Source: a bacterium
GTDB lineage: Bacteria > UBP15 > UBA6099
Length of the DNA stretch: 64,000 nt
Assembly: GCA_029564595.1 (NCBI GenBank)
Contig: JAKQPS010000197.1
Coordinates: forward strand, 1 to 64,000
Direction: 5' to 3'
Shown here: piece after piece, positions 137 through 55,924 of the stretch
Position numbering within the stretch: position 1 is the stretch's first letter
Layout of the letters: the number at the start of each line of letters is the position of its first letter
Notes under the pieces: generated by a model
What the model saw: the letters and a program-made list of their open reading frames with translations, nothing else
What the model was told of the DNA's origin: nothing
Database searches by the model: none
Translations under genes and position numbers: made by a program

Positions 137-346
137 TTACTCTCTTCCCGTATTCGACTTTCCTATGTCGCGAGACGTTGTTTTACTCTTTGACAAGAAT
201 GATGCGTAGTCATTATCATTGAGCCTCGGAACTATTCGCTCATCAGAACTAGAACGCCTTAAATGATTTGACGCGCTATTTGTAAGTCTGTTTCTGTCAG
301 CGCCTACATAGATGTATTCTGCGCCGATATCTTTTGTTTTTTTCAT
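137..346 (-). CDS. small hypothetical protein at the distal end of the phage module
   Basis: About 69 residues, polar, rich in Asn, Ser, Arg and Lys, with no membrane segment and no family I recognise. A TTG at 379 would give 80 residues, but the ATG at 346 has a GGAAAAG ribosome-binding site 5 nt upstream, so I prefer it. It begins about 35 nt after the stop of the tail-completion-like gene (381-824) and would be co-transcribed with it. Base composition is more AT-rich than the virion genes, as in the other cargo-like genes nearby. It could be a late phage gene or a non-coding stretch. Confidence 0.4.
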   Translation of the reverse strand: MKKTKDIGAEYIYVGADRNRLTNSASNHLRRSSSDERIVPRLNDNDYASFLSKSKTTSRDIGKSNTGRE

Positions 347-380
347 AATATCTTTTCCATTATTTCGCGTGTTTTTCAAA

Positions 381-824
381 TCACAATGGCGCTCGCAGGC
401 GGCAGGTGATAACGACCAACCCTATGCGCGTTGTTTCGTCGTCGCTCCCGGTGTGGTTCGGATCGGCGCTTGCTATCTGCGCCGGCTCGAAACACCTTCC
501 GAATGCGCGCCCCCTCAGCGCGTCGCAGATGTCGTCGCAAAGCTCGACTATTCCAACGACGCCGCACTCCGCGCCCTCGCGCGCGACTCCCGGCGCAAGA
601 CTCTTCGTTCCCGCGATTATTTCTATCATGTATGTCAGAACCACGCTTCCGGTCGTCGCCTTGTCCTGACTGATATGAAAATTGCCGACATCGATAAACG
701 GAAATATCTTTCGCGACACGCTCATGTCTCCGTGCGATATTCTTTTAACGTATGAGGAAAGCTTCGGGTCGCTCCTCAATGTTTCCAGAATGTTGTCCAG
801 TATTTCTTTATTGTCGATATTCAT
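381..824 (-). CDS. phage tail-completion/terminator-like protein (paralogue 1)
   Basis: 147 residues. The N-terminal half aligns by eye with the next gene upstream (866-1336): both have a short helix with Leu-Ser-x-Tyr-Val-Lys, then an Arg-x-Ile-Phe-Pro-Phe strand. Size, layout and position after the gp36-like connector suit a tail-completion or tail-terminator protein at the head-tail junction of a Mu-like or siphovirus-like particle; this is inferred from context, not from a clear family match. It has a good Shine-Dalgarno (AAGGAG) about 9 nt before its ATG. The two paralogues are separated by 41 nt. Confidence 0.6.
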   Translation of the reverse strand: MNIDNKEILDNILETLRSDPKLSSYVKRISHGDMSVSRKIFPFIDVGNFHISQDKATTGSVVLTYMIEIIAGTKSLAPGVAREGAECGVVGIVELCDDICDALRGRAFGRCFEPAQIASADPNHTGSDDETTRIGLVVITCRLRAPL

Positions 825-865
825 AGTTCGGCGCTCCTTATCGTCAATCGCGTCTTATGCAGGGT

Positions 866-1336
866 TCACGCGGATTGTTTGTCCGTCGCTGTCATTCCGC
901 TCAGCGAGACTTCGCAGGCCCACGACCTGCCCCCGGAGCCGGATTTGTGCGCGGTGGACGAATTCAACAGTTTGACCGGCGCCTCGAACGCGCCCCCGAA
1001 ATCGTTCATCACGACCGCGTTAAGGATGTCCGCGTTTAGTTGCAGTATTCCTTTCGCTCCGGACTTCTCATCTCCCGCGTGCGCGGTCTCAGGCAGAGTG
1101 TGGAATGTCCCGCCGTATATGCGGATCGCGCAGTCGTTTCTCATCTGCCCCGCCTTCCCGATCGTCAACGCCTCGGCTTCGTTCTCTATCGCGCTCACCG
1201 ACACAAAAGGAAAGATATTCCTCGCGGCGTCAATTCCGCCCGCCGAGAACTTCTTCACATATCCCGACAAAGCGGCATCCGCCTTGAGGCAGCTCAACAC
1301 TTTTTCCGCGATTTCCTTCCCGCTGAACGTTCCCAT
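866..1336 (-). CDS. phage tail-completion/terminator-like protein (paralogue 2)
   Basis: 156 residues from the ATG at 1336, which has a strong GAGGGGG site 7 nt upstream. The in-frame ATG at 1396 has none and would add 20 unrelated residues. It is paralogous to the downstream gene: the same N-terminal helix plus Asn-Ile-Phe-Pro-Phe strand. A later segment with a Lys-Gly-Ile-Leu-Gln-Leu helix resembles small minor tail proteins. Probably a head-tail joining or tail-terminator protein; the exact family is uncertain. The tandem pair suggests either duplication or two subunits of the connector. Confidence 0.6.
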   Translation of the reverse strand: MGTFSGKEIAEKVLSCLKADAALSGYVKKFSAGGIDAARNIFPFVSVSAIENEAEALTIGKAGQMRNDCAIRIYGGTFHTLPETAHAGDEKSGAKGILQLNADILNAVVMNDFGGAFEAPVKLLNSSTAHKSGSGGRSWACEVSLSGMTATDKQSA

Positions 1337-1644
1337 AAGAGTCCCCCTCGTTGATTTTGAATGATTCTCTGATAGCGCCAGTGAATTGTCCGACATGCCA
1401 AATTAATGTTCGCCCTTATTCTTCGCATGTTTTCACGCCCAATACAAATAGCACATGGCATTAAGCAAAGAAAGATGTCTCTTTGTCTATATTTCGCTGT
1501 GACAGCAAAAACAAATTATTTTCAAAATATGACATTCAGTTTTCGTTGTAATGACGGCAAGGAGAGATATTTCACTTTTTGCAATAAGCGCAATGGATGA
1601 TTGATCCGGATTCCATGCCGATGCGCGAGGAACAATCGGCAACC

Positions 1645-1995
1645 TTAGTTTTTCTTGTTTTCCTTTAGCGAGTACCCATATCCTAAAATCGCCGCGACCG
1701 ATATATTCACTGCATACCTAATTAATTCGCTCATCATGAATATTGCGTTGTCAATCAATTCAAAAACCATCGAAAGGATGAAAAGCGCGATGTTCGAATA
1801 AAGCGCCACGTATATTGCTGCGACAAACCGTTTTTCTTTCGCTATATTGCAAGCGACGACTACTCCTAAAACAATCGGCATAATTTCCGCGATATCAAAC
1901 ACAACATGATCTTCGAGCGGCGTCTTCATGAAAAAAACCACGGATACCGCAACTGTTATGACAACGCCCAGAGCTATCGATATATTTCGAGACAT
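1645..1995 (-). CDS. small integral membrane protein, possible immunity protein
   Basis: 116 residues with about four hydrophobic helices (roughly 7-24, 36-51, 57-82 and 88-110) and a short Lys-rich C-terminus. It has a strong GAGGAGG site 6 nt before the ATG. It lies 57 nt downstream of the 212-residue putative papain-like protein on the same strand, and both are AT-rich compared with the virion genes. The arrangement of a soluble enzyme followed by a small multi-pass protein is typical of effector-immunity or toxin-antitoxin pairs, but that role is only inferred. No named family recognised. Confidence 0.65.
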   Translation of the reverse strand: MSRNISIALGVVITVAVSVVFFMKTPLEDHVVFDIAEIMPIVLGVVVACNIAKEKRFVAAIYVALYSNIALFILSMVFELIDNAIFMMSELIRYAVNISVAAILGYGYSLKENKKN

Positions 1996-2052
1996 ATACG
2001 CCTCCTCAGCGCAGTATTGTCATTTCCTATCACATCTCCGCATTAAACGGCT

Positions 2053-2691
2053 TCATAGCTTTTCGACACGCGCGTTCTTCTTTGTTTTTGGCGGCCAATC
2101 ATCGAACTTATATATTACCGGCTTTTGTTCATACCACGGATCAAAAATATACCCTTCTTTTAGGTCGCCACCTTTTTCATATACTGCCACCGCGCTATGT
2201 CCGGGTATTCTGACAGGATCGATATTCCAAAGCTGAATCGGCGGAACAATATTGATCAAAAGGTAGTATGTTCTCGCTTGGCATTCCAAACATCCATAGC
2301 ATCCCTTTATTTTGAATAATTTTACTCCAGAATTAGCTTTCCAACCTTTTAAGGGACAATTTATCTTCGATATCCAATATCCATAATAAGCTCGTTTCAG
2401 CCTTTGAAACTCCATTTCTGCTGCCTCTCCAACACGCAATACATGATTTGCTAGGTTGCTTTTATTCTTTAATTTAAAGCGCTGGGTATCAAACTTCATC
2501 TGTATTGCTTCTTGCGGGACAAGCTGGCGAAAATCGCCTTCAATAATACCGCTCCATGCCAAAGGCAATCTTGACGACACAGCGTTGTCGCCATTTGAAT
2601 ACACCGTTAACTTATGTTCTTTGTTCATCAACTCTAAACAATCCGCGCCGTAAAATATATAATCACCAATTGGATCGTCTCTATTTGCCAT
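2053..2691 (-). CDS. hypothetical protein with papain-like Cys-His-Asp arrangement
   Basis: 212 residues, AT-rich, no signal peptide. The C-terminal half has a cysteine cluster before a helix (C131, C134, C137), then Gly-His165-Ser-Ala-Val-Ala-Val-Tyr, then Ile-Phe-Asp184-Pro-Trp-Tyr. That order and the local motifs resemble papain-like fold cysteine hydrolases (NlpC/P60- or transglutaminase-like), where Cys, His and Asp form the triad; this is pattern resemblance only. The N-terminal 110 residues are unrecognised. A TATAAT hexamer at 2709-2714 (minus strand) ends about 18 nt before the start, so the gene may have its own promoter, as phage cargo genes often do. A 4-TM gene follows. Confidence 0.6.
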   Translation of the reverse strand: MANRDDPIGDYIFYGADCLELMNKEHKLTVYSNGDNAVSSRLPLAWSGIIEGDFRQLVPQEAIQMKFDTQRFKLKNKSNLANHVLRVGEAAEMEFQRLKRAYYGYWISKINCPLKGWKANSGVKLFKIKGCYGCLECQARTYYLLINIVPPIQLWNIDPVRIPGHSAVAVYEKGGDLKEGYIFDPWYEQKPVIYKFDDWPPKTKKNARVEKL

Positions 2692-2847
2692 ATCGCATCG
2701 CCCTCGCTATTATATCCATTGTTCTCTTTGATTTCGCAGGGGTTTTAGTCCAACATAAAGGCTGTATGGCTTATTCCAGTTGTTTAGATTAATCCTTAAA
2801 CATGAAATGCCATTTATTGATTGTCATCTGTTTTTGGCATTGCTCTC

Positions 2848-3321
2848 TCACCAATCCTCCATCGTGCCCTCGAACGGCTCGCAAACGCTGGCGCCGCCGG
2901 ATGTGCGCTCGACGGTGAAAATCCTGTCCTGATTCGGAGTGGTGGTGGAAACTTTTGAGTCCATGCCGAAACCGGAGCCGGTCGTCAAAGCTCCTCCGCT
3001 CTCGACCAATTTGTCGAGCAGTTCGAGCGGGCGCTTGTAAAATTTGTCCACCCATTCGGAGTCGTTCGGCGCGCTCCCGGTGAAGAGCCGCCGCAACAGG
3101 AAATACGTCGCCAGATCGTCCGATATCCCGTTTACGACGGCGGGCGGAGACACGAGCGGAAGCGTCGCGAACCCGACGGCGACGGCAAGCCGGGCGTCGA
3201 TTATCGCGTCCGCGGCGGCGCGGCAGTCGGCGGCCATCTCCTCTGTTATCGCCTCGCATACGACTAGGTCCGCATAGTCTATCAAGTTGTTGCTGATTCC
3301 GTTTTCAGTTCCGTAAGGCAT
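2848..3321 (-). CDS. phage head-tail connector, gp36/DUF1320-like
   Basis: 157 residues with a perfect AAGGAGG site 7 nt before the ATG. The pattern of an early acidic helix, Asp-Ala-Arg-Leu-Ala-Val, a Leu-Pro-Leu-Val-Ser-Pro-Pro segment and then Ile-Ser-Asp-Asp-Leu-Ala-Thr-Tyr-Phe-Leu-Leu-Arg-Arg-Leu matches the DUF1320 family (Mu gp36). In that family the protein is a small neck component, made next to the capsid genes. It sits downstream of the capsid gene and upstream of the two tail-completion-like genes, the usual order in Mu-like phages. Confidence 0.75.
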   Translation of the reverse strand: MPYGTENGISNNLIDYADLVVCEAITEEMAADCRAAADAIIDARLAVAVGFATLPLVSPPAVVNGISDDLATYFLLRRLFTGSAPNDSEWVDKFYKRPLELLDKLVESGGALTTGSGFGMDSKVSTTTPNQDRIFTVERTSGGASVCEPFEGTMEDW

Positions 3322-3429
3322 GGAAGTCCTCCTTAGCTCCGACCGTCGCGCGGCCGGGCAATGTCGCTATTGATTTATTTATGCAAAGAAAGCCGGGCGC
3401 GGCGCGGGGCCGCGCCCGGAAACAATCGC

Positions 3430-4806
3430 TTATTCCTCGGCGTACAGCAGGGCGGCGGTGGCGGTTCCGCCGGTTTCGTTTTCGACAACGACGGCAAGCG
3501 CGGCTCTCCCTCCGGCGGGACAATGCGCTCTGCCGACCACCTCCATCACCGCGGGCGTCTCGGACAATATGACCGGGTACGCGTCCGCGCCGTCTATCTT
3601 CAACATGCAGCGCAACTTGTTGTCCGCTCCGGCGGCCGCAAACTCTCCGGCCACTCCGATGACGAGAATGTCTCTCTGCGGCGTGAAAGAGAACACCTCA
3701 GCGCCTTCCGGAAACGACGTTCCGGGGCCGGACACGCTCGTTTCGACAGCGTCGCCGAAAGCGTCTGCGTTGAAAACATAGTCTTCCTCCGCGCCCGCCG
3801 CTTCAAACAGCGAGGGAACCCTTGTTATCCGCATCAGCATCGACGCCATCGGCCCCGCGCTCAGGCTCTCAAGCAAGTCGTCTATCTGGTCCGCCGGACA
3901 CAGCAGCGTCAGCCGCAGCCACCCCAGTTCCATCGCGGCGGCGTCAATCTCCACCAGCAGCGCGTCGATGTCCTGAAGCCCGTCGAGTATCGGCGTTTCC
4001 TCATCCAGCAACTCTTCCGGCTCGGAATCAGCCGCCACCCTTGCGCCCCAACCGGTCACGCCGTATCCTCCGCTCACATAATGGCAGAAGTTGGAAACCG
4101 GATACTGTCCGGGATCGTCCGTGTAGTCGTTTCCGTCGAACGACAGCGCGGAGCAGTATCCCTCGAAAACTTCGCTGACATCGTTCCACACGATGGAGGG
4201 AGGAGACATTCTTGCGCCGCCCGCGCCATCGCCGCCCCAGAGGGCGGGAGCGTCGCCTTCGACAGGAGTCCATTCGACGGCGGGTTCCGGGAGGGGTCTG
4301 TCGCCGCCTCGCCCGTCGCCGCCCCAGAGCGCCGCGCCGGCGGCCGTAATCGCGGCAGTGTTCACCGGGCCGAAGTCTGCGCCCGGCCCTTCAGGCGCAG
4401 CGAAAACACTCAAGATGACGAGGTCGGCGGTCGCCTCAAGAGTCTCGGCCACGGAGTTCGGACACACTATCGTCGCGCGCGATTCCCCGTCCGTCACAAG
4501 CGCTATCGCCAGAGACCCGCTCTCGCCGGTTATCCCCGACGCCATCAAGTTGTGCGGCTCGCCGTCAATCACGACGAACATCTGCTCAGTCCCCATGAAT
4601 ACCATCGTTCCGGGGCCTTCCGATGAGTGGTTATACACCGCTCCGTTGAATTCGAGCGCGCAACTGAGCGCCCTGTAGTCCTCCCTCGCAGCGTTCCACT
4701 CGATCGTCGGAAGAGCCGCCGCCTCGTCCGCGCTCCCATCGGACTGATACAGCCTTGTCGTTTTCACTGCCATTCCGTCCCTGTCGTAACTCGTTCTTCT
4801 TCCCAT
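3430..4806 (-). CDS. unrecognised virion-associated protein with internal duplication
   Basis: 458 residues, no signal peptide, GC content like the virion genes; an upstream GAGGGG site supports the ATG at 4806. Two internal repeats are visible. One is Pro-x-Ile-x-Trp-Asn followed by a Cys-Ser/Ala-Ala-Leu strand at residues 33-58 and 203-229. The other is an identical Ala-Leu-Trp-Gly-Gly-Asp-Gly core at 159-165 and 188-194. The C-terminal 100 residues look like a beta-sandwich. Between capsid and gp36-like genes, it may be a head fibre, decoration or other capsid-surface protein, but I do not recognise the family and would not assign one. Confidence 0.7.
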   Translation of the reverse strand: MGRRTSYDRDGMAVKTTRLYQSDGSADEAAALPTIEWNAAREDYRALSCALEFNGAVYNHSSEGPGTMVFMGTEQMFVVIDGEPHNLMASGITGESGSLAIALVTDGESRATIVCPNSVAETLEATADLVILSVFAAPEGPGADFGPVNTAAITAAGAALWGGDGRGGDRPLPEPAVEWTPVEGDAPALWGGDGAGGARMSPPSIVWNDVSEVFEGYCSALSFDGNDYTDDPGQYPVSNFCHYVSGGYGVTGWGARVAADSEPEELLDEETPILDGLQDIDALLVEIDAAAMELGWLRLTLLCPADQIDDLLESLSAGPMASMLMRITRVPSLFEAAGAEEDYVFNADAFGDAVETSVSGPGTSFPEGAEVFSFTPQRDILVIGVAGEFAAAGADNKLRCMLKIDGADAYPVILSETPAVMEVVGRAHCPAGGRAALAVVVENETGGTATAALLYAEE

Positions 4807-5004
4807 TGTTATTCACCCCTCATATTCTCACGCAACGCAAACCGCCGCGCGGATGAACTCCGTGTTGCTTTCATACTCATGTCTGATTGATTTGTTGAGA
4901 ACTATTCAAAGCAAATCACGACGCGCGCAAAACCGAGCCTGCGCCGATGGATGCTATCAAAATATTTGTGTGGTTATAACCTTGTGGGTTTTGCAGCGCT
5001 TCTG

Positions 5005-5463
5005 TTAATCGTCGACTTCTGCTTTGTATTTATTTTCTCTTTCTTTTCTTCTTGTAGAAGAACCGTATATAAAAACTGAAACCAGCGCCGCTATACTGCC
5101 TCCACCCATAGCAATCGCCACTCCGAACTGGCCCACAACAGCACAGATCGTTGCCCCAACGAGAGCGATGATTGATATGATAAAACCAAACCACAACCCC
5201 ATTCGCGAGTCTTTGATTTCCGATTCAATCACACTTTTCTCAAGATATCGCCTGTGCTCTGCTTGCTTTTCAGCCATAGCAATAAGTCTCTCTGCCGACC
5301 CGGGCACAATCAAATCATATTCCCTAAGATGCGCCGGGAGCGGAATCGGACCATGATAAGATGCTGTGATATGCTGCGTTCTCGGTTGATTGCTATTGCC
5401 AACCAGAGAAGGCTTTGAAGAGCTAGATTCAGATTGATTTTTACTTTTTTTCTTCTTCGTCAT
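5005..5463 (-). CDS. DUF2335-family membrane protein
   Basis: 152 residues. The segment Tyr-His-Gly-Pro-Ile-Pro-Leu-Pro, the following Val-Pro-Gly-Ser-Ala-Glu-Arg-Leu helix and Glu-Gln-Ala-Glu-His-Arg-Arg are characteristic of DUF2335 (predicted membrane protein, unknown function). Two C-terminal hydrophobic helices (about 88-108 and 113-133) precede a basic tail. The first codons overlap the end of the 68-residue gene upstream by 23 nt, so the two are almost certainly translated together. Nothing about it looks virion-related; it is probably cargo carried between head genes. Confidence 0.8.
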   Translation of the reverse strand: MTKKKKSKNQSESSSSKPSLVGNSNQPRTQHITASYHGPIPLPAHLREYDLIVPGSAERLIAMAEKQAEHRRYLEKSVIESEIKDSRMGLWFGFIISIIALVGATICAVVGQFGVAIAMGGGSIAALVSVFIYGSSTRRKERENKYKAEVDD

Positions 5464-5647
5464 GTCTTAACATAGCGGCCTTGATATCTTTCCCGACCAT
5501 TTTCCAATCACTTGAAATCGCCCTTGCGTCTGCTTCTTCAGAGCTTGAACTTGAATTATACTCTTTCAACGTGCCGCCCAAATCCAATACTCTTGCCATT
5601 CCGCCCAAAAAAGACGGCTTCGCATATAGATAATCTGTTTTCGTCAT
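5441..5647 (-). CDS. small soluble partner of the DUF2335 protein
   Basis: 68 residues, hydrophilic, with a conserved-looking N-terminus (Asp-Tyr-Leu-Tyr-Ala-Lys-Pro-Ser-Phe) followed by Ala-Arg-Val-Leu-Asp-Leu-Gly-Gly-Thr, a Ser/Glu linker, and an Asp-Trp helix with Val-Gly-x-Asp-Ile-x-Ala-Ala-Met. From memory, small proteins of this type commonly precede DUF2335 genes; I cannot confirm that here. An AGGGGA site lies about 10 nt upstream. Its 23-nt overlap with the next gene and conserved pairing suggest a two-component module of unknown function. Confidence 0.75.
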   Translation of the reverse strand: MTKTDYLYAKPSFLGGMARVLDLGGTLKEYNSSSSSEEADARAISSDWKMVGKDIKAAMLRHDEEEKK

Positions 5648-6031
5648 TCTTCGCCGTCCCCTCTCTATCTAAAAACCGCTTCCCACGAGACACTTCAATA
5701 TAATGATATATATTTTCTCGAAAATTACCATACAAGCGATTTTATACCACAGAACAAAATGACAGTCAATTCCATCTCGAGCGCTTGTGTTAGAATCAAA
5801 CAAATTTCTCTGTTTTTTGCCATCAGAAAAAGATGTCTTCCCGCGAGGGCGAACGGCTTCGCGAAACCGGCCTAACGGCGCGCGCGGTTCCGGACGCCGC
5901 GCAGGCGCGCATTATTCAAGGTCTGTGCCCTTCGTGTTGCCGCCGCAAAAGCCGCCGCTCTCGCGGGAGACACCTTTGTTTTTGTGACAGGATTCGCGCG
6001 CTGTCGCTCAACGCGCCGCAGATGCGACCGC
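5648..6031. other. 384-bp spacer between capsid gene and DUF2335 module
   Basis: No convincing gene on either strand. The left half is AT-rich (near 5700-5760) and is the natural place for the DUF2335 pair's own promoter, though I cannot pick clear -35/-10 hexamers. The right half is GC-rich and keeps long open frames, which suggests it may once have been coding. Confidence 0.5.
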
Positions 6032-6988
6032 CTACATGGCGATGGCGTCCTTGATGAGGTAGCCGCAGTATTCGCTGACGACTTTCTCGACGATGATTTC
6101 GGAAACCTCGACGGCGTCGCTCTTGCGGCCGTCCTCGCGCCATTTGGCGACTTGGCGCGGCTGGCTCTGGAACGTCAGGCCGAAGGTCATGGTTCTGGGC
6201 GTGCGCGGGTTGGGAGCCACGTACGCCACGAGGACGTTTCCGCCCCAGACATCGGAAGCCGAGAAGGGTTGTCCCTCTTCGGCGGAGTCGAACACCGCGC
6301 CGGGGATCAGCACCCGAAGGTTCCACAGGGCCGGGGGCAGGTCCCCGTTGACCAGAAGCGTGTTGTCGGTGTACTTGATAAGTTCCCGCACTGCGGGGTC
6401 GCGCTTGACGCATTTTGCCACCGCCGCCGGGATGACCACCACGTTAGGCTCGCGCCCGATTGATCCGCGCACCGCTTCCTTCGCCGCGTCTATCCTCGAT
6501 TCGATTGCGTCCTCCTTGGAGTCGCTGTCGAACGAGGCGTCGTTCCACTGCCGGGAACCGCTCAACTCGATGAAGTTGCCTGACGCCGCGAACGTCGCCG
6601 GGTCGCATAGCATGTCGGCCGCGCGCTTTTCCCGGTTCAGCATCAGCATATTGGTCAGGTTTTCGGCGACGTCGAAGTCGGGGGCGAGAGGGGCGTCGGC
6701 GTTACGCCTCTCGCGGTCGCTCACCAAGTCGGCCAGCGCCCTCTCCTCGCACCTGTACGTCGGGGTGGACTCTATCTTCCACGAATCGATGAAGTTCGTG
6801 TCCGCCTTCTCGGCGCGCAGGTCCCGTGTCGTCCTGAAGTCCTGCCTGCCGTAAACGAAATAGGCGTCGCTGTCTTTCGCCACGTCGATGCGCGGCATGA
6901 TCAGGTCCGCTATTAGCGCTCCGTTGGAGTGCTTCAACGAAAAATTCGTCAGGGCCTGATCGATGTGTATCGTTCCTCTGTTGCTCAT
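6032..6988 (-). CDS. phage major capsid protein
   Basis: 318 residues with an ideal GAGGAGG site 7 nt before the ATG. The N-terminal segment with Asp-Gln-Ala-Leu-Thr-Asn-Phe-Ser, the middle Asn-Val-Val-Val-Ile-Pro-Ala-Ala-Val-Ala, and the C-terminal Tyr-Leu-Ile-Lys-Asp-Ala-Ile fit major capsid proteins of Mu-like and related tailed phages (HK97-type shell). Length is typical. It follows the DUF2190 decoration gene after a 208-nt spacer filled by a dispersed 190-bp repeat. The reading frame is intact, so the shell subunit could still be made. Confidence 0.85.
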   Translation of the reverse strand: MSNRGTIHIDQALTNFSLKHSNGALIADLIMPRIDVAKDSDAYFVYGRQDFRTTRDLRAEKADTNFIDSWKIESTPTYRCEERALADLVSDRERRNADAPLAPDFDVAENLTNMLMLNREKRAADMLCDPATFAASGNFIELSGSRQWNDASFDSDSKEDAIESRIDAAKEAVRGSIGREPNVVVIPAAVAKCVKRDPAVRELIKYTDNTLLVNGDLPPALWNLRVLIPGAVFDSAEEGQPFSASDVWGGNVLVAYVAPNPRTPRTMTFGLTFQSQPRQVAKWREDGRKSDAVEVSEIIVEKVVSEYCGYLIKDAIAM

Positions 6989-7008
6989 TTTCCCGCCTCC
7001 TCAGGCAA

Positions 7009-7200
7009 GTTTTTCCAACCCGAACCCTTCGTTAGGATTCGGGCGCGATTGTTCATAGTGGATGAAACGCGAGGCGCAAGGCGCGTTTTTGCGGTGAACA
7101 GAACACAAGGTTCATGAACAAAAATGCGTCGGCAACAAAGCTGTTCGCCACTATGAAAATCGCCCCGGTTCGCAGGTTCAATCGGCGAATCCGGGTTCAA
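7009..7200 (-). repeat. dispersed hairpin repeat R1, copy B
   Basis: On the minus strand this segment matches 55615-55807 along its full length: by eye about 24 mismatches in roughly 187 positions plus one 3-nt gap. Its first bases supply the TGA stop of the DUF2190 gene and it ends about 20 nt before the capsid start codon. The terminal arm CCCGAATCC / GGGTTCGGG still pairs through a T-G wobble, and the first hairpin differs from copy A at both partners, so base-pairing is retained. Confidence 0.85.
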
Positions 7201-7604
7201 GCGTTGATCTCGCCCGGAATGCACAGGATGCACTTCACGAGCGAGCCGGCCGTGTTGGCCGAACTTATCGCGCGGCCCACTATTCCGGTTCCGGCAGCGA
7301 GTTCTCCCTCGCCTTTCGGCTTCACCCTTCCTTGGACGTCCGCCACGATAAGCGTGTCCCCGATCTCGACCGCCTCGGCTATCTTCACCTTTGCGATCCC
7401 GGCCACCTGAAAAGAGCCTGTCCGGCCCTCCGTCAGCGCCGCGTCCCTCAGCGCTCCCGCCACGTTGCCCGCTCCCTCTCCGCCGGGCCTCTTCACCTGC
7501 CCTTCCGTCTCGGTGTCGAGCACGGCCACGCAACACTGCTCCAGCGGCTCCTCGCCCTCCTTCAGCGCGTACGTCGCCACCAACAACTCGTTCATCTCCG
7601 CCAT
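7197..7604 (-). CDS. DUF2190-family capsid decoration protein
   Basis: 135 residues. Val-Ala-Gly-Ile-Ala-Lys-Val-Lys, Ile-Gly-Asp-Thr-Leu-Ile-Val and the Gly-Arg-Ala-Ile-Ser-Ser-Ala-Asn-Thr-Ala-Gly-Ser segment are those of DUF2190, small proteins encoded between protease and major capsid genes that decorate or stabilise the head. A GGGGAGG site lies upstream; a second in-frame ATG at 7595 is possible. The stop codon lies inside repeat R1, so the extreme C-terminus may have been altered by that insertion. Confidence 0.8.
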   Translation of the reverse strand: MAEMNELLVATYALKEGEEPLEQCCVAVLDTETEGQVKRPGGEGAGNVAGALRDAALTEGRTGSFQVAGIAKVKIAEAVEIGDTLIVADVQGRVKPKGEGELAAGTGIVGRAISSANTAGSLVKCILCIPGEINA

Positions 7605-7847
7605 CTCTCTTTCACCTCCCCTTTTTTATCGCCCCCTCGCCGGAGGCGTTTGTCTCTCGTTTATCCGTTTTCTTCTATTGCCATTTCGCCACTTGCGCGC
7701 TATCATTAATCCTGAATCCGCCGCGAAATTCAGGCGGGCGGTCGGCGACGCGCGAAATGCCGCCCTCATTTCTCGCGGCAAGTTAGCGAACGAAGTTTTT
7801 GTTGATAAATAAAAGCTGTTTTGTTTTTCAGAAAAGAGGATTGTGTT

Positions 7848-8678
7848 ATGGTAGACCTTAAAGAAATGTTAATCAAACCGGAATTTCCCCGCTCGGCGGG
7901 TTACGATCCCGACTGGCAGCTAAGCAACCAGATGGGGCCGAACGCGCTGTGGCTGTGCGAATGGCTTTGCGAGGCGATGGAGCTGAAGCCCGGAATGAGG
8001 GTCCTCGATCTGGGTTGCGGAAAAGCGATGACCAGCATATTTCTGGCGCGCGAGTTCGGCGTCCGCGTATGGGCGGCGGACCTGTGGATGAGCCAAGACA
8101 ACAACTGGAACCGCGTCAAGGAAGCCGGCGCTCAGGACTCGGTCTGCCCGCTCCGCATGGAAGCCCACGCGCTTCCGTTCGCCGCAGGGTTCTTCGACGC
8201 CGTCATCTCGATAGACGCCTATCATTATTTCGGCACGGACGAACACTACATTGACTACATCGGCCAGTTCGTGCGGGAGGGCGGCCAGTTCGGCGTCGTC
8301 GTGCCCGGCCTCGCGCGCGAGTTCGAGAACGGCGTCGTTCCGACCCATCTTGCCGAGCCGCAATCAAACGGAAAGGCTTTCTGGGAGCCTGCCTGCCGAA
8401 GCTTCAAAACCGCCGGGTTCTGGAACGCTCTTTGGCAAGGCTCGGCGTCGGTTCAAGATGTGAAAGTCGATCTTCAACCCGACGGCTGGCGGCTCTGGAT
8501 GGAATTCGAGCGCGCAATCGAAAAGTCGGGAAAAGGCATATTTCCGTCCGACGCCGAGGCTCTGGAAAAAGACGCCGGGCAATACATCGCTTTCATGAGG
8601 CTGACCGCTCGGCGGTCCGCTCTCTCAGAAATGAACCTTTACGACCCGACCCTCGGCCTCCAATGCGGCGCTGAATAG
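7848..8678 (+). CDS. class I SAM-dependent methyltransferase
   Basis: 276 residues from the ATG at 7848, preceded by AGAGGA at a good distance; an upstream ATG at 7821 has no site. Motif I is Val-Leu-Asp-Leu-Gly-Cys-Gly-Lys-Ala, followed by an acidic Ala-Ala-Asp-Leu loop and a Val-Ile-Ser-Ile-Asp-Ala-Tyr-His motif IV strand, giving a normal Rossmann methyltransferase of the small-molecule type (Methyltransf_11/25-like). The substrate cannot be told. It is the only plus-strand gene within the phage module, lying head-to-head with the DUF2190 gene, and is probably an acquired gene. Repeat R2 follows its stop codon. Confidence 0.85.
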   Translation: MVDLKEMLIKPEFPRSAGYDPDWQLSNQMGPNALWLCEWLCEAMELKPGMRVLDLGCGKAMTSIFLAREFGVRVWAADLWMSQDNNWNRVKEAGAQDSVCPLRMEAHALPFAAGFFDAVISIDAYHYFGTDEHYIDYIGQFVREGGQFGVVVPGLAREFENGVVPTHLAEPQSNGKAFWEPACRSFKTAGFWNALWQGSASVQDVKVDLQPDGWRLWMEFERAIEKSGKGIFPSDAEALEKDAGQYIAFMRLTARRSALSEMNLYDPTLGLQCGAE

Positions 8679-8711
8679 CTTTTTGCTGTTGTATAAAAGA
8701 GTTTTGTATCT

Positions 8712-8817
8712 GTTTGCGGGGGAACCATTTTTTTGCATAAAACAGGTTCCCCCTCGCCCTTCTGAAAAAACTCTTGGCGCGCCAATTTTGTTGAACTCCG
8801 TTCAACTCAAAATCGGC
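8712..8817 (-). repeat. dispersed hairpin repeat R2, copy 1
   Basis: On the minus strand this matches 53370-53472 end to end at roughly 80% by eye, including two long hairpins. One has arms GCCGATTTTG / CAAAATTGGC; the other pairs GGGGGAACC with GGTTCCCCC. It occupies the gap between the convergent methyltransferase and membrane-protein genes and probably acts as a two-way terminator. Confidence 0.8.
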
Positions 8818-8864
8818 TATTTGTGAAATAGACTATAGCCATAAAGCTCAAATTGGATTTGCCA

Positions 8865-9374
8865 TCAGAGGCGCGCGGCTCGGAACAATCCCGCAGCGAC
8901 GGCTCCGCCCAACCGGGCCGAGATCCAAATCATCAGCGCCGGCATGATTCCGACGGCAAGAAGTATTCCGGGCAGATAGTTTATAGGATTATCGCCTCCG
9001 AAAAGCGGAACTCGCAACAATGGCGAAAATGCGAGCATGGCAAATCCGTACAGAAAAGCAGATGGAGAAGCTATGACCACCGAGAGAATAGCGCCCGGCA
9101 GATAGCCCGCCGCGCCGTTCTGGTTTTTTCGCGCCGCTGAGATGAAAGCGCGCGTCGTCAATATCCCGATCACCGCTCCGGCTAGCAGAGTCAACGGCGG
9201 CCCCGCAAGCAGCATGGCCGCTCCTTCAGCGGTCAAACGCATCGCCCCGTGTCTCCACATTAGAAACTCCGTCCACCAGCCCGTCGCCCACGCGCCGTAC
9301 GGAAAAAAAGCAATCGCCACTGCCAAAACTACGAAAGTCCTTTTTCTGCCTTTATCCCGTTTGACGTCCGTCAT
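8865..9374 (-). CDS. hypothetical multi-pass membrane protein
   Basis: 169 residues from the ATG at 9374, which overlaps the preceding gene's stop as ATGA; a start at 9425 would add 17 residues. There are about four hydrophobic stretches (around 15-32, 48-72, 90-115 and 128-160) and a basic N-terminus. No family recognised. It is the last of four minus-strand genes (11379 to 8865), all encoding exported or membrane proteins, which interrupt the phage head genes. Confidence 0.7.
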   Translation of the reverse strand: MTDVKRDKGRKRTFVVLAVAIAFFPYGAWATGWWTEFLMWRHGAMRLTAEGAAMLLAGPPLTLLAGAVIGILTTRAFISAARKNQNGAAGYLPGAILSVVIASPSAFLYGFAMLAFSPLLRVPLFGGDNPINYLPGILLAVGIMPALMIWISARLGGAVAAGLFRAARL

Positions 9375-9958
9375 GGCGTTTCCCTTTCGACAGCGCCCGG
9401 AAGCGTTCCTTTCCGTTCCCGCCATTTACTAACTTTTTTCATCACACATTCGTTAAAGTAATACGAGGCCGGGCGTTGGGACGCGCCATACTCAACCATG
9501 TCCGCTCCGCCTCCAAGTTCTTCTCCCGGCTCGCAGACCCAACCGATCAACCCGTCGACATCGGAATGCTTCGCCGCGCAGCAACTAAAACGCGTCCCTA
9601 CAGCCGTGGAAAGAGCGTTCGCTAGATGCGTCCTGCTCATTTCTCCTGTTTCCTCAGACAGAATTCCCTGTATTATCATAGAAAGGCGAGGCTCGTCGCT
9701 CAAAGGATATCGTTCGCCCATCCTAATCAGATTTCCGGTCAAGGCATATTGAGCGTCTCTGTAATCGCGAACCGAGCGAATCATTCTTTCGGCGTCCTTA
9801 TGTCCGCCGAATACTCTTATGATTGTCGCGGGGACGCGCCCCATTCGTCCTTCTGTCGCGTCTATGACGAGAAATGATGACGCCACGAGAAGCTTCAACG
9901 AAATAAGCGTCGCCACCGGCAATCCCGCAAGAAGAAAAACTATCTCGCTCCGCTTCAT
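9371..9958 (-). CDS. hypothetical membrane-anchored protein
   Basis: 195 residues from the ATG at 9958 (GGAG just upstream; an alternative ATG at 9994 adds 12). One N-terminal hydrophobic segment (about 5-30) would anchor a hydrophilic C-terminal domain outside the membrane. That domain has several cysteines (a Cys-Cys pair and two singles) that could form disulfides. No recognised family. It overlaps the next gene by 4 nt, so the two are translationally coupled. Confidence 0.7.
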   Translation of the reverse strand: MKRSEIVFLLAGLPVATLISLKLLVASSFLVIDATEGRMGRVPATIIRVFGGHKDAERMIRSVRDYRDAQYALTGNLIRMGERYPLSDEPRLSMIIQGILSEETGEMSRTHLANALSTAVGTRFSCCAAKHSDVDGLIGWVCEPGEELGGGADMVEYGASQRPASYYFNECVMKKVSKWRERKGTLPGAVERETP

Positions 9959-10023
9959 ATTCTCCACCCGTCGTTCTTCACTGTGAATTAGCAAACAATG
10001 TCAAATCTTCAGGGATTGCTTCT

Positions 10024-10638
10024 TCATTTCGATTCAACGGCAAATGGGTTCGTCCGGCCCTTCACGTAAACGATGTCTTTCACTCCCTCGCCGGGAAGAC
10101 AATCCTTGTCCTGCCACATGAAGGAACTCATCCGTTCCGAAATTTCCTCTTTCTTATCTTCGATGACGGCCTTGTCGGCATTGGAGTCAAATATCTCCCA
10201 TCTCAGCGGATCAATAATGGTGATGTCGCCATAGAAAAGCGACGCGTGTTTCCTCATGTATGATTTTGCTTTTTCTTTATCGCCCATCAGGCAGTGCGCT
10301 CGCGCGTATCCGATATACGCATACCCCAGCATCGTGGATTTCTCCCTCAAAACCTTTCCACTGGCGAAAACATGCCCGGCCGCGCCCTCGGCATATTCCT
10401 CCAGTTCCCGCGCTTTCAGCAATCCATACTCGGGATTCTTTTCGCCTCCTATATATGATTCCGTCGCAAGGGTTAAAAACACGCTGAAAACTTCTTTGTC
10501 CTCTTTCGTAAAACCCAGCGTTTCGAGATTCCTGCCGAACTCTTCGTTGAACCGTTTCTTCGCGCTCTTGCTCAGAATGCAGTCTGTCAGAAACAAAGAT
10601 GCGATAAGACAAAGACAGATCGCGACAAGTCTTTTCAT
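10024..10638 (-). CDS. hypothetical lipoprotein
   Basis: 204 residues with a lipoprotein signal: basic start, a hydrophobic core, and Phe-Leu-Thr-Asp-Cys at 16-20 as an imperfect lipobox (Asp before Cys is unusual). The mature part is helical and mostly hydrophilic, with a tetratricopeptide-like stretch (Ala-Tyr-Ile-Gly-Tyr-Ala-Arg-Ala-His-Cys, then Lys-Ala-Lys-Ser-Tyr). No family recognised. It belongs to the four-gene exported cluster inside the phage module; an AAGGAG site lies 10 nt upstream. Confidence 0.7.
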   Translation of the reverse strand: MKRLVAICLCLIASLFLTDCILSKSAKKRFNEEFGRNLETLGFTKEDKEVFSVFLTLATESYIGGEKNPEYGLLKARELEEYAEGAAGHVFASGKVLREKSTMLGYAYIGYARAHCLMGDKEKAKSYMRKHASLFYGDITIIDPLRWEIFDSNADKAVIEDKKEEISERMSSFMWQDKDCLPGEGVKDIVYVKGRTNPFAVESK

Positions 10639-10731
10639 GAGTTCGCCGCTCCTTTTTCAAAATTCAACGCTCTTTGACGGCGCAAACATTAACCGCATCC
10701 GCGCGGTGAAACATCTCTGTCGCGCCCCGTC

Positions 10732-11379
10732 TTATAGACGATTTCCTTTTATAATCCGCTTCGCTTCCGCCGAATCGCCGGTTCGATACTCGTCGGATTC
10801 CGAACAGAAAGGCAGAAAATCCTCTCCGCCTGTTCTTCGTTTCCATTCCCATTCTTTTCGCGGCGAACTGTCTATGTAGGACAGGTCTGAAAACATCAAC
10901 GTCATCATTTTTGCGGTTTCGTCCGGATCGTCCCGCCCGACAGCCGCGCCGTCGGCCCTCGATATCCATCTTCTCGTCCAGATTTCTTCGGCGCGGCGGC
11001 GATGATTGGCCGCTTCGCCAGAGTTTCCCGTTTTTTCCATAAAGAACACTGCCCACCGCTCCGCTATGAATTCGAGCGCGTCCGGGGGCATACAGCCTAG
11101 GGTTTCCGCGACTGCCCCCACGCTGCTCCCGCTTCGTTCCCTGACTCCGGGAACTTCTTCCAGCATTCTCTTTATCATGAGCATCGCGTCTTCGCTCCCG
11201 TTTTCCTCAAAAACGCTCCTTGCCATTCCCATCAGAATCCGAGAATATGTTCCCGGACTGTCACTTTTCAGTTGCCGCGTGAATGAGTCGAATTTCTCCT
11301 CCTTAAAACAACCCGGCAAGCATACGAGCGCAGTTGCGGCAACCGACATTAGAACCGCCTTCATGAAAGCTGATTTCAT
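10732..11379 (-). CDS. hypothetical lipoprotein
   Basis: 215 residues. The N-terminal signal ends in Leu-Pro-Gly-Cys (C24), a plausible lipobox, with GGAGG 6-7 nt before the ATG. The mature region is helical and charged, without a motif I recognise. It starts 60 nt downstream of the phage protease stop and heads the four-gene exported cluster. Composition and codon use resemble the C-terminal extension of the protease more than the virion genes. Confidence 0.7.
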   Translation of the reverse strand: MKSAFMKAVLMSVAATALVCLPGCFKEEKFDSFTRQLKSDSPGTYSRILMGMARSVFEENGSEDAMLMIKRMLEEVPGVRERSGSSVGAVAETLGCMPPDALEFIAERWAVFFMEKTGNSGEAANHRRRAEEIWTRRWISRADGAAVGRDDPDETAKMMTLMFSDLSYIDSSPRKEWEWKRRTGGEDFLPFCSESDEYRTGDSAEAKRIIKGNRL

Positions 11380-11439
11380 TTTTCGCCTCCGGTCGTTTTT
11401 CGATAAAACAGCGTCAACGCAAGAAGCGCGAAGCCCGAG

Positions 11440-13416
11440 CTATTTTGACTCGGAAAGCTTTTTGAAAAACACTTTCCTGCCCTCTTCCCTGAATTCCATG
11501 TATTTCATGAGGCAACCTTTGATGTGTTCTTTGTCGCGAGGCTTCCTCATAACATTCTGAGCGATCATATTCATGGCATAGTACGCGGCAAACTCCATCT
11601 CTCCATAACACCCCGGTTCAAAGTCGCCTATTCTTTTTTCAAACGCGGCCGCCGCTTTCAACTGCCATACAGGAGCAATCCAAACTTTGCCGGCCTGACA
11701 GGATTTGTTTTTGCCGGAGACAGCCTCCGCTCCCGCTTTTACGACATTTTTAATCTTCTCGGCCACGCCGCCGCTTTTAGCATAATCGCTCTCATGGCGA
11801 ATATGCCGCTCGTCGGTTTGCGTCCCCATATCATTATCATACTCGCCGCCGCATTGAACGCAAAGAGACGTTTCAAGATTTTCGTTGCCATAAGGAGCCA
11901 CTTTGCCATCTTTTTCTCGCGGTTTTTCATATTCCAGAGCGGCGAGGGCGGCGCGGGAGTAGTCGGACGCGTCGTCGTAGTCCAGCCCGCGCGCGGCGCA
12001 GTAGCTTTTTATCAGCTCTTCGGGGTCGTCCCCCGCCCCGCCGGCCTCGCCGCCCCCGCTTCCGCCTTCTCTCCCGTACTCGCTCATCGCGGGATGTTCG
12101 CTGAGAGCGGACACGAACCCTCTGAAACCTTCCGCTATCCCGCGCCCGGCTTCCGGCGCGAGCGAGTAGTCCGACGCCGCGCACGCGTCACCGTCCAGTA
12201 TCGCCAACAGGTCTATCACGAGGCCCCTGAACGCGGGCGGAATTCTGCCCGCGTTGCGGGACACGAACTGGCGGCGGGCGCGCTCGCGAACCGCGGCCTC
12301 CCGCATCCTGTGCTCGTCGAGCCGTTCGCGGGCCTCGCGCAGGTTTTCAAGCACAACGTCCAGCGCCGCCGCCATCTCTTCAGATTCTGCCCGCGCTTCC
12401 TGATTTTCCTCTTCCGCCGTGTCTGCGGCTTCGCCCTCGTTCGCCATGACTTCCGCAGGCTCCGATTCCGTTTCATCAGCCGTCTGCGCGCCGTCCGCCG
12501 CGAGGCCGTCTTGCGCCTTGTCTCCGCCCTCATCCTCCGCCGCGTCCGTTTCCAGTTCCGGCTCGGTTGCGCCGCTTGCTTCATCCTGTTCGGAAGAATC
12601 CTCTTGTGGAGCGTCGGCGACATCGCCGGCAACTTCGGTCGCTTCCGCGTCCGCATTGTCAAGGCCGGTCCCGTCTTCGCTTGCGGTTTCCTCGCGGCTC
12701 TCGGCTTCAGGGCCTTCATCCAGCTCCGCATCCTGTTTTTCGGCAATGATAAGAAGCGCTTCAAGTTCTACTATCCGCGCTTCGAGCGCCGCTATCTTTT
12801 CAATCATTTCGCTCATGGTCATTTCGTCTTCCGGATTATCGGCGTCGGTCGGTTCGGGCGACACATCGGCGCAGCCGTCATCGAGGATGCCCGCCGGGCC
12901 GGATTCGTACAGGTAAGCCGCGCAGCCGCTTGAAGTTCCGTAGAGAGCGCCGATATCCGCAAGCGAGCCGATGGCGGGCAGCGCGGCCCCGAGCAGCGCC
13001 AGTCCGGCGGCCACATGCTTGTGCGTCGCGCCTGTCGCTTCGTCGAGGTATCCGTGAAGGACTTCGAGGCTGCGCTTGCGGTATGCTCCCGCCCGTATCA
13101 GGTCGTAAACTTTTGCGGGCACGCCAACAAGGTCGGCCAACAGCCTTCCCCCCTGCGCGCGCACGTTCCTCAGCCAACCTGCGGCAGGCAGCCCGTCCGC
13201 GCTCAACAGCGGCTGCTCCGGGTCGTGCCCCAGCTTCACCGGCGGGTCGAGCCTGCCTTCCAGCGCCCTGTGCGACTCCGCCATCTCCTTCAAATCATCT
13301 TCCGTGTATGCGACCGTCCTTCCCGCGCTGTCCGTCCATGTTCCCGCCCGGAATATCTCCACATCCTTGATTTCAAAAGTTTCGGGCGTATTTCTTTCCT
13401 CGTTCGAGTTTTCCAT
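11440..13416 (-). CDS. Mu gpI-like phage protease/scaffold with C-terminal extension
   Basis: 658 residues. Residues 15-160 match the Mu I-type head maturation protease: Trp-Thr-Asp-Ser-Ala-Gly-Arg, Val-Lys-Leu-Gly-His64-Asp, a Gly-Trp-Leu strand and Lys-Arg-Ser116-Leu-Glu-Val, with His64 and Ser116 the likely active-site pair. An acidic coiled region (about 190-390) is the usual scaffold. The normal fold seems to end near residue 500. The last ~158 residues (DNA 11440-11916) are Lys- and Cys-containing, come from less GC-rich DNA and look like a separate domain fused in frame. GGAGG precedes the ATG. No portal or terminase gene lies upstream. Confidence 0.8.
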   Translation of the reverse strand: MENSNEERNTPETFEIKDVEIFRAGTWTDSAGRTVAYTEDDLKEMAESHRALEGRLDPPVKLGHDPEQPLLSADGLPAAGWLRNVRAQGGRLLADLVGVPAKVYDLIRAGAYRKRSLEVLHGYLDEATGATHKHVAAGLALLGAALPAIGSLADIGALYGTSSGCAAYLYESGPAGILDDGCADVSPEPTDADNPEDEMTMSEMIEKIAALEARIVELEALLIIAEKQDAELDEGPEAESREETASEDGTGLDNADAEATEVAGDVADAPQEDSSEQDEASGATEPELETDAAEDEGGDKAQDGLAADGAQTADETESEPAEVMANEGEAADTAEEENQEARAESEEMAAALDVVLENLREARERLDEHRMREAAVRERARRQFVSRNAGRIPPAFRGLVIDLLAILDGDACAASDYSLAPEAGRGIAEGFRGFVSALSEHPAMSEYGREGGSGGGEAGGAGDDPEELIKSYCAARGLDYDDASDYSRAALAALEYEKPREKDGKVAPYGNENLETSLCVQCGGEYDNDMGTQTDERHIRHESDYAKSGGVAEKIKNVVKAGAEAVSGKNKSCQAGKVWIAPVWQLKAAAAFEKRIGDFEPGCYGEMEFAAYYAMNMIAQNVMRKPRDKEHIKGCLMKYMEFREEGRKVFFKKLSESK

Positions 13417-13769: not shown

Positions 13770-13781
13770 ATGGGGGAAGAA

Positions 13782-17305: not shown

Positions 17306-17508
17306 AAACAAAGGAGAGGGAGATTGGGATCAGGCCAGCCCTGCGCCCGACGCCCTAATCGTGATTTAATTACAGTCATGTAGAAACTTGCCCCGATAAG
17401 AATTTCACAAATGGGAGCCGCGGGGAAATTTGTTTGCTCGTGCCGCATTTTGACGAACAGCGCCCCCAAGCGAGTTTGGCGGGTGGCTCCCGAGATGATA
17501 CCTGAAGT

Positions 17509-17537
17509 TTTTCAACAACCTCTAGTATTGCTATAAT
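17509..17537 (+). promoter_or_regulatory. candidate sigma-70 promoter for the GH20 gene
   Basis: TTTTCA (17509-17514), a 17-bp spacer and a perfect TATAAT (17532-17537), about 80 nt upstream of the hexosaminidase start codon. Confidence 0.55.
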
Positions 17538-17615
17538 TACAGTCTGACCGCTTTATGTTCGCCCAAGCGGTCGCGTCATGGCGCGGTGGGCACAGCCGCA
17601 GTTGCGAGGAATAAT

Positions 17616-53369: not shown

Positions 53370-53472
53370 GCCGATTTTGCTTAGAACGAAGTTCTTCAAA
53401 ATCGGCGTCCAAGAGTTTTTTCGGAAGGGGCGCGGGGAAACCGGTTTTTGCAAAAACGGTTGCCCCGCAAAC
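53370..53472 (+). repeat. dispersed hairpin repeat R2, copy 2
   Basis: Matches 8712-8817 (minus strand) along its length. First hairpin: GCCGATTTTG (53370-53379) with CAAAATCGGC, containing an inner AGAAC/GTTCT stem. Second: GCGGGG...TTTTTGCAAAAA...CCCCGC. It fills the gap between the convergent lepA and fabG-like genes and can stop both transcripts. Confidence 0.8.
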
Positions 53473-53514
53473 TTGCAGAAAAATTCATTTAAGCATTAGC
53501 ATGAAAAATCTCGG

Positions 53515-55618: not shown

Positions 55619-55807
55619 ACCCGGATTCGTCGATAGAGCCGACGAACCGGGGCGATTTTCATAGCGGCGAACTGCTTCGTTGCCGCCGCATTTTTTTTGT
55701 TCATGAACCCTATGTTCTATTCGCTGCAAAAATGCGCCTTGCGTTCTGCGTTTCATCCGCTCTGAACAATCGCTCCCGAATCCTAATGAAGGATTCGGGT
55801 TGAAAAC
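55615..55807 (+). repeat. dispersed hairpin repeat R1, copy A (full length)
   Basis: About 190 bp, with a full copy at 7009-7200 (minus) and a partial copy at 25939-25990. It begins with the TGA stop of the CaiB gene and has three inverted repeats: CCCGG.TTCGTCG/CGACGAACCGGG near 55620-55653, GCGGCGAA/TTC..GCCGC near 55665-55690, and CCCGAATCC/GGATTCGGG near 55775-55799. No coding capacity. It fills most of the gap up to the amidotransferase gene. Confidence 0.88.
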
Positions 55808-55924
55808 TTCCCGCGCCGCTCTCCGCGCGCGCGTTGAATATGGCGTCACCATTGTGCTACAATTCCATTCTTGCGGGAAGGCGGGCGAAACTCCGGCCCT
55901 TCTCTTCCCGGTCCCGGAGCCGCA

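What the first reader, a model, noticed from the sequence alone, without database searches (positions are those of the whole stretch)
381..13416. Head/neck module with no portal or terminase and heavy cargo
Protease, decoration, capsid, gp36-like and tail-completion genes are intact, yet the DNA upstream of the protease is a host-type MFS gene on the opposite strand rather than portal and terminase. Ten non-virion genes interrupt it. This could be a decayed prophage, or a domesticated particle or gene-transfer-agent-like locus keeping its shell.
Basis: partly seen in the sequence, partly recalled or inferred. Interest (0 to 1): 0.68.

Follow-up and report, generated by a model that had tools for sequence, protein, structure and literature searches.

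The report
Split phage-like particle carrying swappable toxins
An uncultured bacterial lineage appears to have tamed an ancient phage into a particle system kept at two separate places in its chromosome, and the protein that scaffolds the particle's head carries interchangeable toxin-like tails next to matching immunity-like genes, which suggests a home-made device for sending DNA, toxins or both into neighbouring cells.

Summary
Protease, decoration, capsid and neck genes are intact and stop at an MFS gene, with no portal or terminase beside them. Window position 1 is a contig end; a sister genome carries the whole region on one contig, where tail, M15 endolysin and holin-like genes follow. 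A Mu-type portal and GpA-type terminase are not lost: they lie together at a second, unlinked locus. The portal was found in all six genomes that carry the module, the terminase in five.

Core genes are under strong purifying selection (capsid and portal dN/dS 0.01-0.07, like host genes), host-like in composition, and the capsid is as conserved across genera as LepA. Neither locus shows an integrase. This is a split, domesticated, GTA-like particle system, not a decaying prophage.

Unexpectedly, the protease-scaffold ends in a swappable C-terminal domain. Two unrelated tails occur in four sister genomes, each followed by its own immunity-like genes; one genome keeps a displaced orphan module and the window keeps orphan immunity genes. 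The scaffold's terminal motif also occurs on separate toxin-like proteins. I infer polymorphic toxins loaded into the head through a scaffold tag. Toxicity, loading and DNA transfer are untested.

The parts
11908..13416 (-). Constant part (residues 1-503) of the head maturation protease/scaffold; ends in the scaffold tail motif KSYCAARGLDYDDASDYSRAALAALEY
   Evidence: phrog_976, phrog_3894; 81-88% identical in three same-genus genomes; tail-motif profile
11440..11907 (-). Variable C-terminal domain CT_A (residues 504-658), toxin-like; shared with G004, replaced by unrelated CT_B in G005 and G006; orphan copy downstream in G005
   Evidence: GC falls from 0.64 to 0.48 at the junction
10732..11379 (-). 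Immunity-like lipoprotein partner of CT_A (215 aa)
   Evidence: immediately downstream of CT_A in G000, G004 and behind the orphan CT_A in G005; absent with CT_B in G006
10024..10638 (-). Second immunity-like lipoprotein partner of CT_A (204 aa)
   Evidence: same distribution as 10732-11379
9371..9994 (-). Orphan immunity-like gene of the CT_B type (family of p218); CT_B itself is not on the window's protease
   Evidence: directly downstream of protease-CT_B in G005 and G006; weak homology to p218 (2e-5) and G006 paralogue (0.004)
8865..9425 (-). Membrane protein that travels with 9371-9994 (second CT_B partner)
7821..8678 (+). SAM-dependent methyltransferase gene on the opposite strand inside the module
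   Evidence: Pfam Methyltransf_25/CMAS; conserved in G004 and G006, dN/dS 0.09-0.15
7197..7604 (-). Head decoration protein
   Evidence: Phage_cement_2 0.012, below cut-off; 62-69% identical in G007 and G008
6032..6988 (-). Major capsid protein
   Evidence: phrog_1005 8.8e-65; 98-99% genus, 72-77% family, 74% order
5005..5463 (-). Membrane moron-like gene, only in this genome among those compared
   Evidence: phrog_3996 3e-35; no match in G004 or G006
3430..4806 (-). 458-aa conserved gene between capsid and neck genes, probably structural
   Evidence: no family hit; 93-94% identical in G004, G006
2848..3321 (-). gp36-like head-tail adaptor
   Evidence: PF07030 1.5e-8, phrog_195 2.3e-5
2053..2691 (-). 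Cargo, 212 aa, toxin-like by position; N-terminal motif GDYIFYGAD
   Evidence: GC 0.40 against 0.57-0.65 for structural genes; motif shared by four cargo proteins, 0.045 expected in the first 40 residues
1645..1995 (-). Hydrophobic 116-aa partner of 2053-2691, immunity-like by position
   Evidence: co-occurs with 2053-2691 in G004
866..1336 (-). gp37-like neck/tail-completion paralogue a (name by position)
   Evidence: homologues in G006, G007, G008
381..824 (-). gp37-like neck/tail-completion paralogue b (name by position)
   Evidence: homologues in G006, G007, G008
137..379 (-). Start of, or truncated, cargo protein with motif AEYIYVGAD
13770..15194 (+). Host MFS gene bounding the locus, same neighbour in G005 and G006

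Best explanation
The window holds the head/neck half of a domesticated Mu/B3-type siphophage particle system that the host lineage has kept in two unlinked pieces: locus A (protease/scaffold, decoration, capsid, neck, tail tube, short tape-measure-like protein, distal tail, hub/fibre, M15 endolysin, holin-like) and locus B (a small gene, a 182-aa protein, GpA-type terminase, sigma-region-4-like protein, Mu-type portal, divergent putative regulator). The particle is probably GTA-like: made by the cell, released by lysis, packaging DNA by the locus B terminase (inferred). On top of that, the scaffold serves as a carrier for polymorphic toxins: swappable toxin-like domains are fused after the scaffold's natural C-terminal motif, or that motif is carried by separate toxin-like proteins, and cognate immunity-like genes lie next to them. 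Because scaffold sits inside the prohead, the most likely mechanism is that this motif takes the toxins into the head, from which they are delivered with or instead of DNA to neighbours that lack the immunity genes. Shown here: two-locus structure, conservation, purifying selection, CT swapping with linked partner genes, recurrence of the motif. Inferred: particle production, DNA packaging, toxicity, immunity, loading and delivery.
For: Portal PF06074 in all six module-bearing genomes away from locus A; GpA terminase single copy in five of them, next to the portal in G000, G005, G006 and G007; G008's copy is on a different contig from its portal, both near contig ends. Locus A on one contig in G006, host genes on both sides; G007 ends at the holin-like gene next to flagellin and pyruvate kinase genes. 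Capsid identity 72-77% (G007) and 74% (G008) against LepA 74% and 73%. dN/dS capsid 0.03-0.04, decoration 0.02-0.04, portal 0.01-0.07, terminase 0.05, host genes 0.02-0.07. Structural GC3 0.66-0.84 like host; CT and immunity-like genes 0.51-0.63. CT_A with 10732/10024 in G000 and G004; CT_B with 9371/8865 in G005 and G006; orphan CT_A plus 10732/10024 behind CT_B and 9371/8865 in G005; orphan 9371/8865 in the window. CT_B-type domains recur on p252 (G000:C117), G004:C532, G006:C30 and G007:C44, each followed by a membrane protein; those of G000, G004 and G006 form one family with orf9371 (E 2e-5 to 1e-32), G007's match is weaker (best 7e-4). A profile built only from protease tails finds the motif in the G008 229-aa protein (4e-9), the G000:C11 protein (4e-7) and the G007 280-aa protein (8.5e-5).
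Against: No CT has a recognised toxin family, fold prediction failed for CT_A (pLDDT 42) and gave no relative for CT_B. In p252 the motif is weak in the independent test (its G004 orthologue E 0.59). G007 and G008 proteases carry no CT, so it is not essential to the particle. The sixth same-order genome (G009, 78% complete) shows none of the genes. Capsid and portal trees do not resolve co-divergence between families. Locus B has different neighbours in G000 than in G004/G005. No expression or particle data.
Confidence: 0.68

Rival explanations
1. GTA-like particle without toxins: the C-terminal domains and small genes are fast-evolving accessory or anti-phage 'moron' genes that happen to sit in the module.
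For: No toxin family recognised in the CTs; some cargo is moron-like (5005-5463, phrog_3996); two genera lack a CT on the protease.
Against: Linked swapping of CT and downstream genes, displaced orphan module in G005, orphan immunity-like genes in the window, CT_B domains always followed by a membrane protein, mostly of one family, in six of six cases; GC drop exactly at the fusion point.
Confidence: 0.17
2. Two conserved pieces of a functional but fragmented or rearranged temperate phage, or a prophage in slow decay.
For: Genes are of Mu/B3-phage ancestry; locus B is bounded by dispersed repeats and sits at different places in G000 and in G004/G005; this lineage carries other active-looking prophages.
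Against: Single copy, no integrase, transposase or replication genes at either locus, LepA-like identity across families, dN/dS like host genes, intact reading frames.
Confidence: 0.08
3. Toxin-only device: the particle no longer moves DNA and the head is purely a protein container.
For: Scaffold-linked cargo would be inside the head (inference); module has lost MuF.
Against: Terminase and portal are kept under very strong purifying selection (dN/dS 0.01-0.07) and the terminase reads through ATPase and nuclease regions without a break, which argues that packaging still matters.
Confidence: 0.07

Closest known systems
Gene transfer agents (RcGTA and other viriforms; PMC9662315)
   Same: Caudoviricete-type head, neck, tail and lysis genes fixed in the host genome at more than one locus, no integrase, slow evolution, short tape-measure-like protein (RcGTA has the shortest tail, five rings, PMC8718954).
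   Different: Mu/B3-type head with GpA-type terminase and DUF935-type portal; terminase-portal split from the rest; swappable CT/immunity cassettes on the scaffold; DNA transfer unproven. A search for papers naming both GTA and polymorphic toxin found none that joins them.
MuF polymorphic toxins of temperate phages (PMC5576092)
   Same: Toxin domain fused to a phage head protein with a partner immunity gene, proposed to be loaded into the head and delivered with DNA.
   Different: Carrier here is the protease/scaffold and its C-terminal motif, not a MuF domain; none of loci A or B encodes MuF; not in a temperate phage.
CdiA/Rhs polymorphic toxins with orphan CT/immunity modules (PMC4927057)
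   Same: Constant N-terminal part, swapped C-terminal part, immunity gene directly downstream, displaced orphan modules.
   Different: Delivery part is a phage scaffold rather than a surface filament or T6SS effector.
T4 internal proteins with a capsid targeting sequence (PMC3012670)
   Same: Diverse proteins sharing only a short tag that takes them into the scaffolding core.
   Different: Tag here is the scaffold's own C-terminal motif, cargo looks like toxin/immunity pairs, and loading is inferred only.
B3-like transposable siphophages (e.g. JBD30, PMC11445458; tblastn relatives of the capsid)
   Same: Capsid family (about 28-30% identity) and gene order from protease to tail.
   Different: Terminase and portal detached, no transposition or replication genes, tape-measure-like protein 237 aa against more than 1,100 residues in JBD30.

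Membership tests
Gene transfer agent | Genes homologous to tailed-phage structural genes | tested here: met
Gene transfer agent | Fully endogenised, often at several loci | tested here: met
   Two unlinked loci, host genes beside them, no integrase seen
Gene transfer agent | Mostly vertical inheritance, co-divergence with host | tested here: inconclusive
   LepA-like identities and presence in six of eight-member order sample support it; trees too weak to show congruence between families
Gene transfer agent | Genes under purifying selection, not decaying | tested here: met
Gene transfer agent | Packages mostly random host DNA; cannot package all its own genes | not testable with these tools
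   needs particles
Gene transfer agent | Delivers DNA to other cells | not testable with these tools
   needs culture
Polymorphic toxin system | Constant N-terminal carrier with variable C-terminal domain | tested here: met
Polymorphic toxin system | Cognate immunity gene directly downstream, swapped with the CT | tested here: met
   (by linkage only; protection not tested)
Polymorphic toxin system | Displaced orphan CT/immunity modules | tested here: met
   G005, L083:2873-3274 with 2164-2805 and 1456-2067
Polymorphic toxin system | CT is toxic | not testable with these tools
   no known toxin domain recognised
MuF toxin | MuF domain at the N-terminus | tested here: not met
   PF04233 hits only in other prophages
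Temperate prophage | Contiguous genome with packaging, replication and integration genes | tested here: not met
Decayed prophage | Relaxed selection, broken genes | tested here: not met
   ORFs intact

The most novel reading that the evidence does not exclude
A vertically inherited GTA-like particle that is also an interbacterial weapon: toxins of interchangeable type are loaded into the head by a tag derived from the scaffold's own C-terminus, so that DNA (which could carry immunity genes to kin) and toxins reach the same recipient, tying gene exchange to kin discrimination.
Probability: 0.4. Interest if true: 0.93.

Novelty: new variant of a known kind. Interest (0 to 1): 0.78.

Why it matters
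If right, it is a new GTA-like lineage outside the known groups, of Mu/B3 ancestry, with its packaging motor kept apart from its head and tail genes. It would also be the first scaffold-linked polymorphic toxin system that I know of, giving a natural example of loading protein cargo into a phage head through the scaffold tail. It makes an open question testable: whether the cost of making GTAs can be repaid by harming non-kin recipients.

Tried and rejected
PF03237 terminase search found only terminases of other prophages (G000:C173; four copies in G006) and of a satellite-like element (G000:C11); the particle's own terminase is GpA-type and was found only through the portal. Idea that the particle lacks portal and terminase and is a pure protein container was dropped. 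Idea that the MuF toxin family explains the CTs was dropped. Viral contigs hold no close relative of the capsid; tblastn of p252 finds nothing in phages. Structure prediction: CT_A too poor to use, CT_B domain confident (pLDDT about 85-90 over residues 150-252) but Foldseek hits were helical chance matches. A weak sequence match of the CT_B profile to an agglutinin (E 0.006) was not pursued. Phylogenies of capsid and portal were too weak at depth. My own first regular expression for the tag over-matched a few chance ORFs and was replaced by profiles.
Full report
What is in the window. The window is the left 64,000 bases of a 64,935-base contig of a 203-contig draft genome. On the minus strand from 13.4 kb down to its left end lie an intact head maturation protease/scaffold, decoration protein, major capsid protein, a 458-aa conserved gene, a gp36-like adaptor and two gp37-like paralogues. 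Upstream is a host-type MFS gene on the plus strand. Position 1 is a contig end, so absence of a tail is an assembly effect.

What lies beyond. Three named genomes hold close relatives of the capsid: bacterium ADurb.Bin236 (G006 here, also listed as G002), USCA_metabat.19 (G004/G001) and Dive96_bin1.91 (G008/G003). G006 carries the full region on one 47-kb contig with the same MFS neighbour. Past window position 1 it continues with cargo, tail tube (PF18906 3.5e-22), a tail-assembly-like protein, a 237-aa tape-measure-like protein, a distal-tail-like protein, a 1,635-aa hub/fibre with DUF2460, an M15 endolysin (1.8e-27), a holin-like protein and a last toxin-like/immunity-like pair, then host genes. 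The window genome has the same genes on contig C117. The C-terminal part of the tape-measure-like protein is 48% identical to the end of a 915-aa tape measure on contig C3, so the particle's version looks shortened; a short tail as in RcGTA (PMC8718954) is inferred.

Portal and terminase. A Mu-type portal (PF06074, E below 1e-68) is present in every genome that has the module, but on other contigs. Next to it in G000, G005, G006 and G007 is a GpA-type terminase (PF05876 2.9e-17, phrog_675 1.7e-93), one copy per genome, also found in G008. G004's portal contig breaks before the terminase. The packaging locus also has a 112-aa and a 182-aa gene, a 114-aa protein like sigma region 4, and a divergent conserved 128-aa gene that may be a regulator (only a 0.038 repressor match). 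In G000, G005 and G006 the conserved segment is about 6.8 kb, ends in dispersed repeats, and its neighbours differ between G000 and G004/G005. No portal, terminase or MuF gene was found at locus A; MuF hits belong to other prophages.

Conservation and selection. The capsid is 98-99% identical within the genus, 72-77% in G007 (same family) and 74% in G008 (same order); the translation factor LepA is 99, 74 and 73%. Within the genus, dN/dS is 0.03-0.04 for capsid, 0.02-0.04 for decoration, 0.01-0.07 for portal, 0.05 for terminase, against 0.02-0.07 for host genes; the constant part of the protease/scaffold is faster at 0.33-0.38, and toxin-like and immunity-like genes mostly 0.2-0.5. Structural genes share the host's third-position GC (0.66-0.84); cargo genes are lower. 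Capsid and portal trees keep the genus together with full support but leave G007 and G008 unresolved, so co-divergence is likely, not proven. G009, in the same order but 78% complete, has none of the genes tested.

The swappable tail. Aligned across the genus, the protease/scaffold is constant to about residue 503 and then diverges completely. The window and G004 carry tail CT_A; G006 and G005 carry an unrelated CT_B. After CT_A come the lipoprotein genes 10732-11379 and 10024-10638; after CT_B come 9371-9994 and 8865-9425. G005 keeps both: CT_B on the protease with its two partners, then an orphan CT_A (88% identical to the window's) with its two partners. The window has CT_A and its partners, then the CT_B partners without CT_B; G004 lacks the CT_B partners altogether. 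This is the displaced-module pattern described for CDI systems (PMC4927057). GC falls from 0.64 to 0.48 at the fusion point.

The tag. In G007 and G008 the protease ends within about 15 residues of the motif xxYCxxxGLDxDDAxDYxRAA, and distant phage relatives end in a similar-looking stretch, so the motif is the natural scaffold C-terminus. A profile from protease tails alone also finds it in three non-protease proteins: a 229-aa protein right after the G008 protease (4e-9), a 280-aa protein among host genes in G007 (8.5e-5) and a 215-aa protein in the satellite-like element of the window's genome (4e-7). In p252 and its orthologues the match is clear only when p252 is in the profile. The G007 protein and p252 carry CT_B-type domains. 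Every CT_B-type domain seen is followed by a membrane protein; those of G000, G004 and G006 and orf9371 are one family, and the G007 one is a weaker match.

Mechanism proposed. Scaffold sits inside the prohead, as for JBD30 (PMC11445458), and T4 shows that a short capsid-targeting tag can bring varied proteins into the scaffolding core (PMC3012670). I therefore propose that the scaffold motif takes toxin domains into the head of a cell-made particle and that they reach recipients with the DNA, as has been proposed for MuF toxins (PMC5576092). The lipoprotein or membrane-anchored look of the partner genes suggests that the toxins act in the envelope. A different cargo class near the neck and tail genes shares a short N-terminal motif, [DE]YIxxGAD (four distinct proteins, 0.045 expected in the first 40 residues), possibly a second loading signal. 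All steps after gene content are inference.

Verdict. Not a decayed prophage and not lacking packaging genes; a conserved, split, GTA-like system that appears to carry polymorphic toxins on its scaffold. New variant of known kinds.

Noticed in passing
L016 (G000:C11) 3646-12557: Satellite-like element: replication-initiator-like and DnaC-like genes, terminase (PF03237) with a small-terminase-like neighbour, a 215-aa protein holding two copies of the particle's scaffold tail motif, and an integrase, but no capsid, portal or tail genes seen. It may parasitise this particle.
   Followed up: partly
L055:18163-18723 and 16953-17585, window 2053-2691 and 137-379: Cargo proteins share an N-terminal motif [DE]YIxxGAD; one has an HExxH-like sequence with weak eCIS_core/metallopeptidase matches, and a G004 cargo (L060:655-1467) has a weak SLT transglycosylase match.
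   Followed up: partly
window 7023-7200, 55615-55812, 53370-53500; L003 17021-17208: Dispersed intergenic repeats of about 130-200 bp, 81-87% identical, many copies also around locus B on G000:C92; possibly miniature mobile elements.
   Followed up: no
L015, L017, L018, L019, L020: Another prophage family, one copy in G000 and four in G006, with integrase-like genes, terminase, portal-like gene and a roughly 1,500-aa protein that contains a MuF domain.
   Followed up: no
L035:3-632, L059:212-1206, L061:10423-11223, L037:12859-13284: Extra, partly broken or contig-cut tail-tube paralogues near gp37-like genes in several genomes, suggesting repeated duplication of tube and completion genes.
   Followed up: no
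window 3430-4806 and L057:4163-9070: The 458-aa protein and the 1,635-aa hub seem by eye to share a repeated domain (CA.E.NG..Y...); not tested.
   Followed up: no
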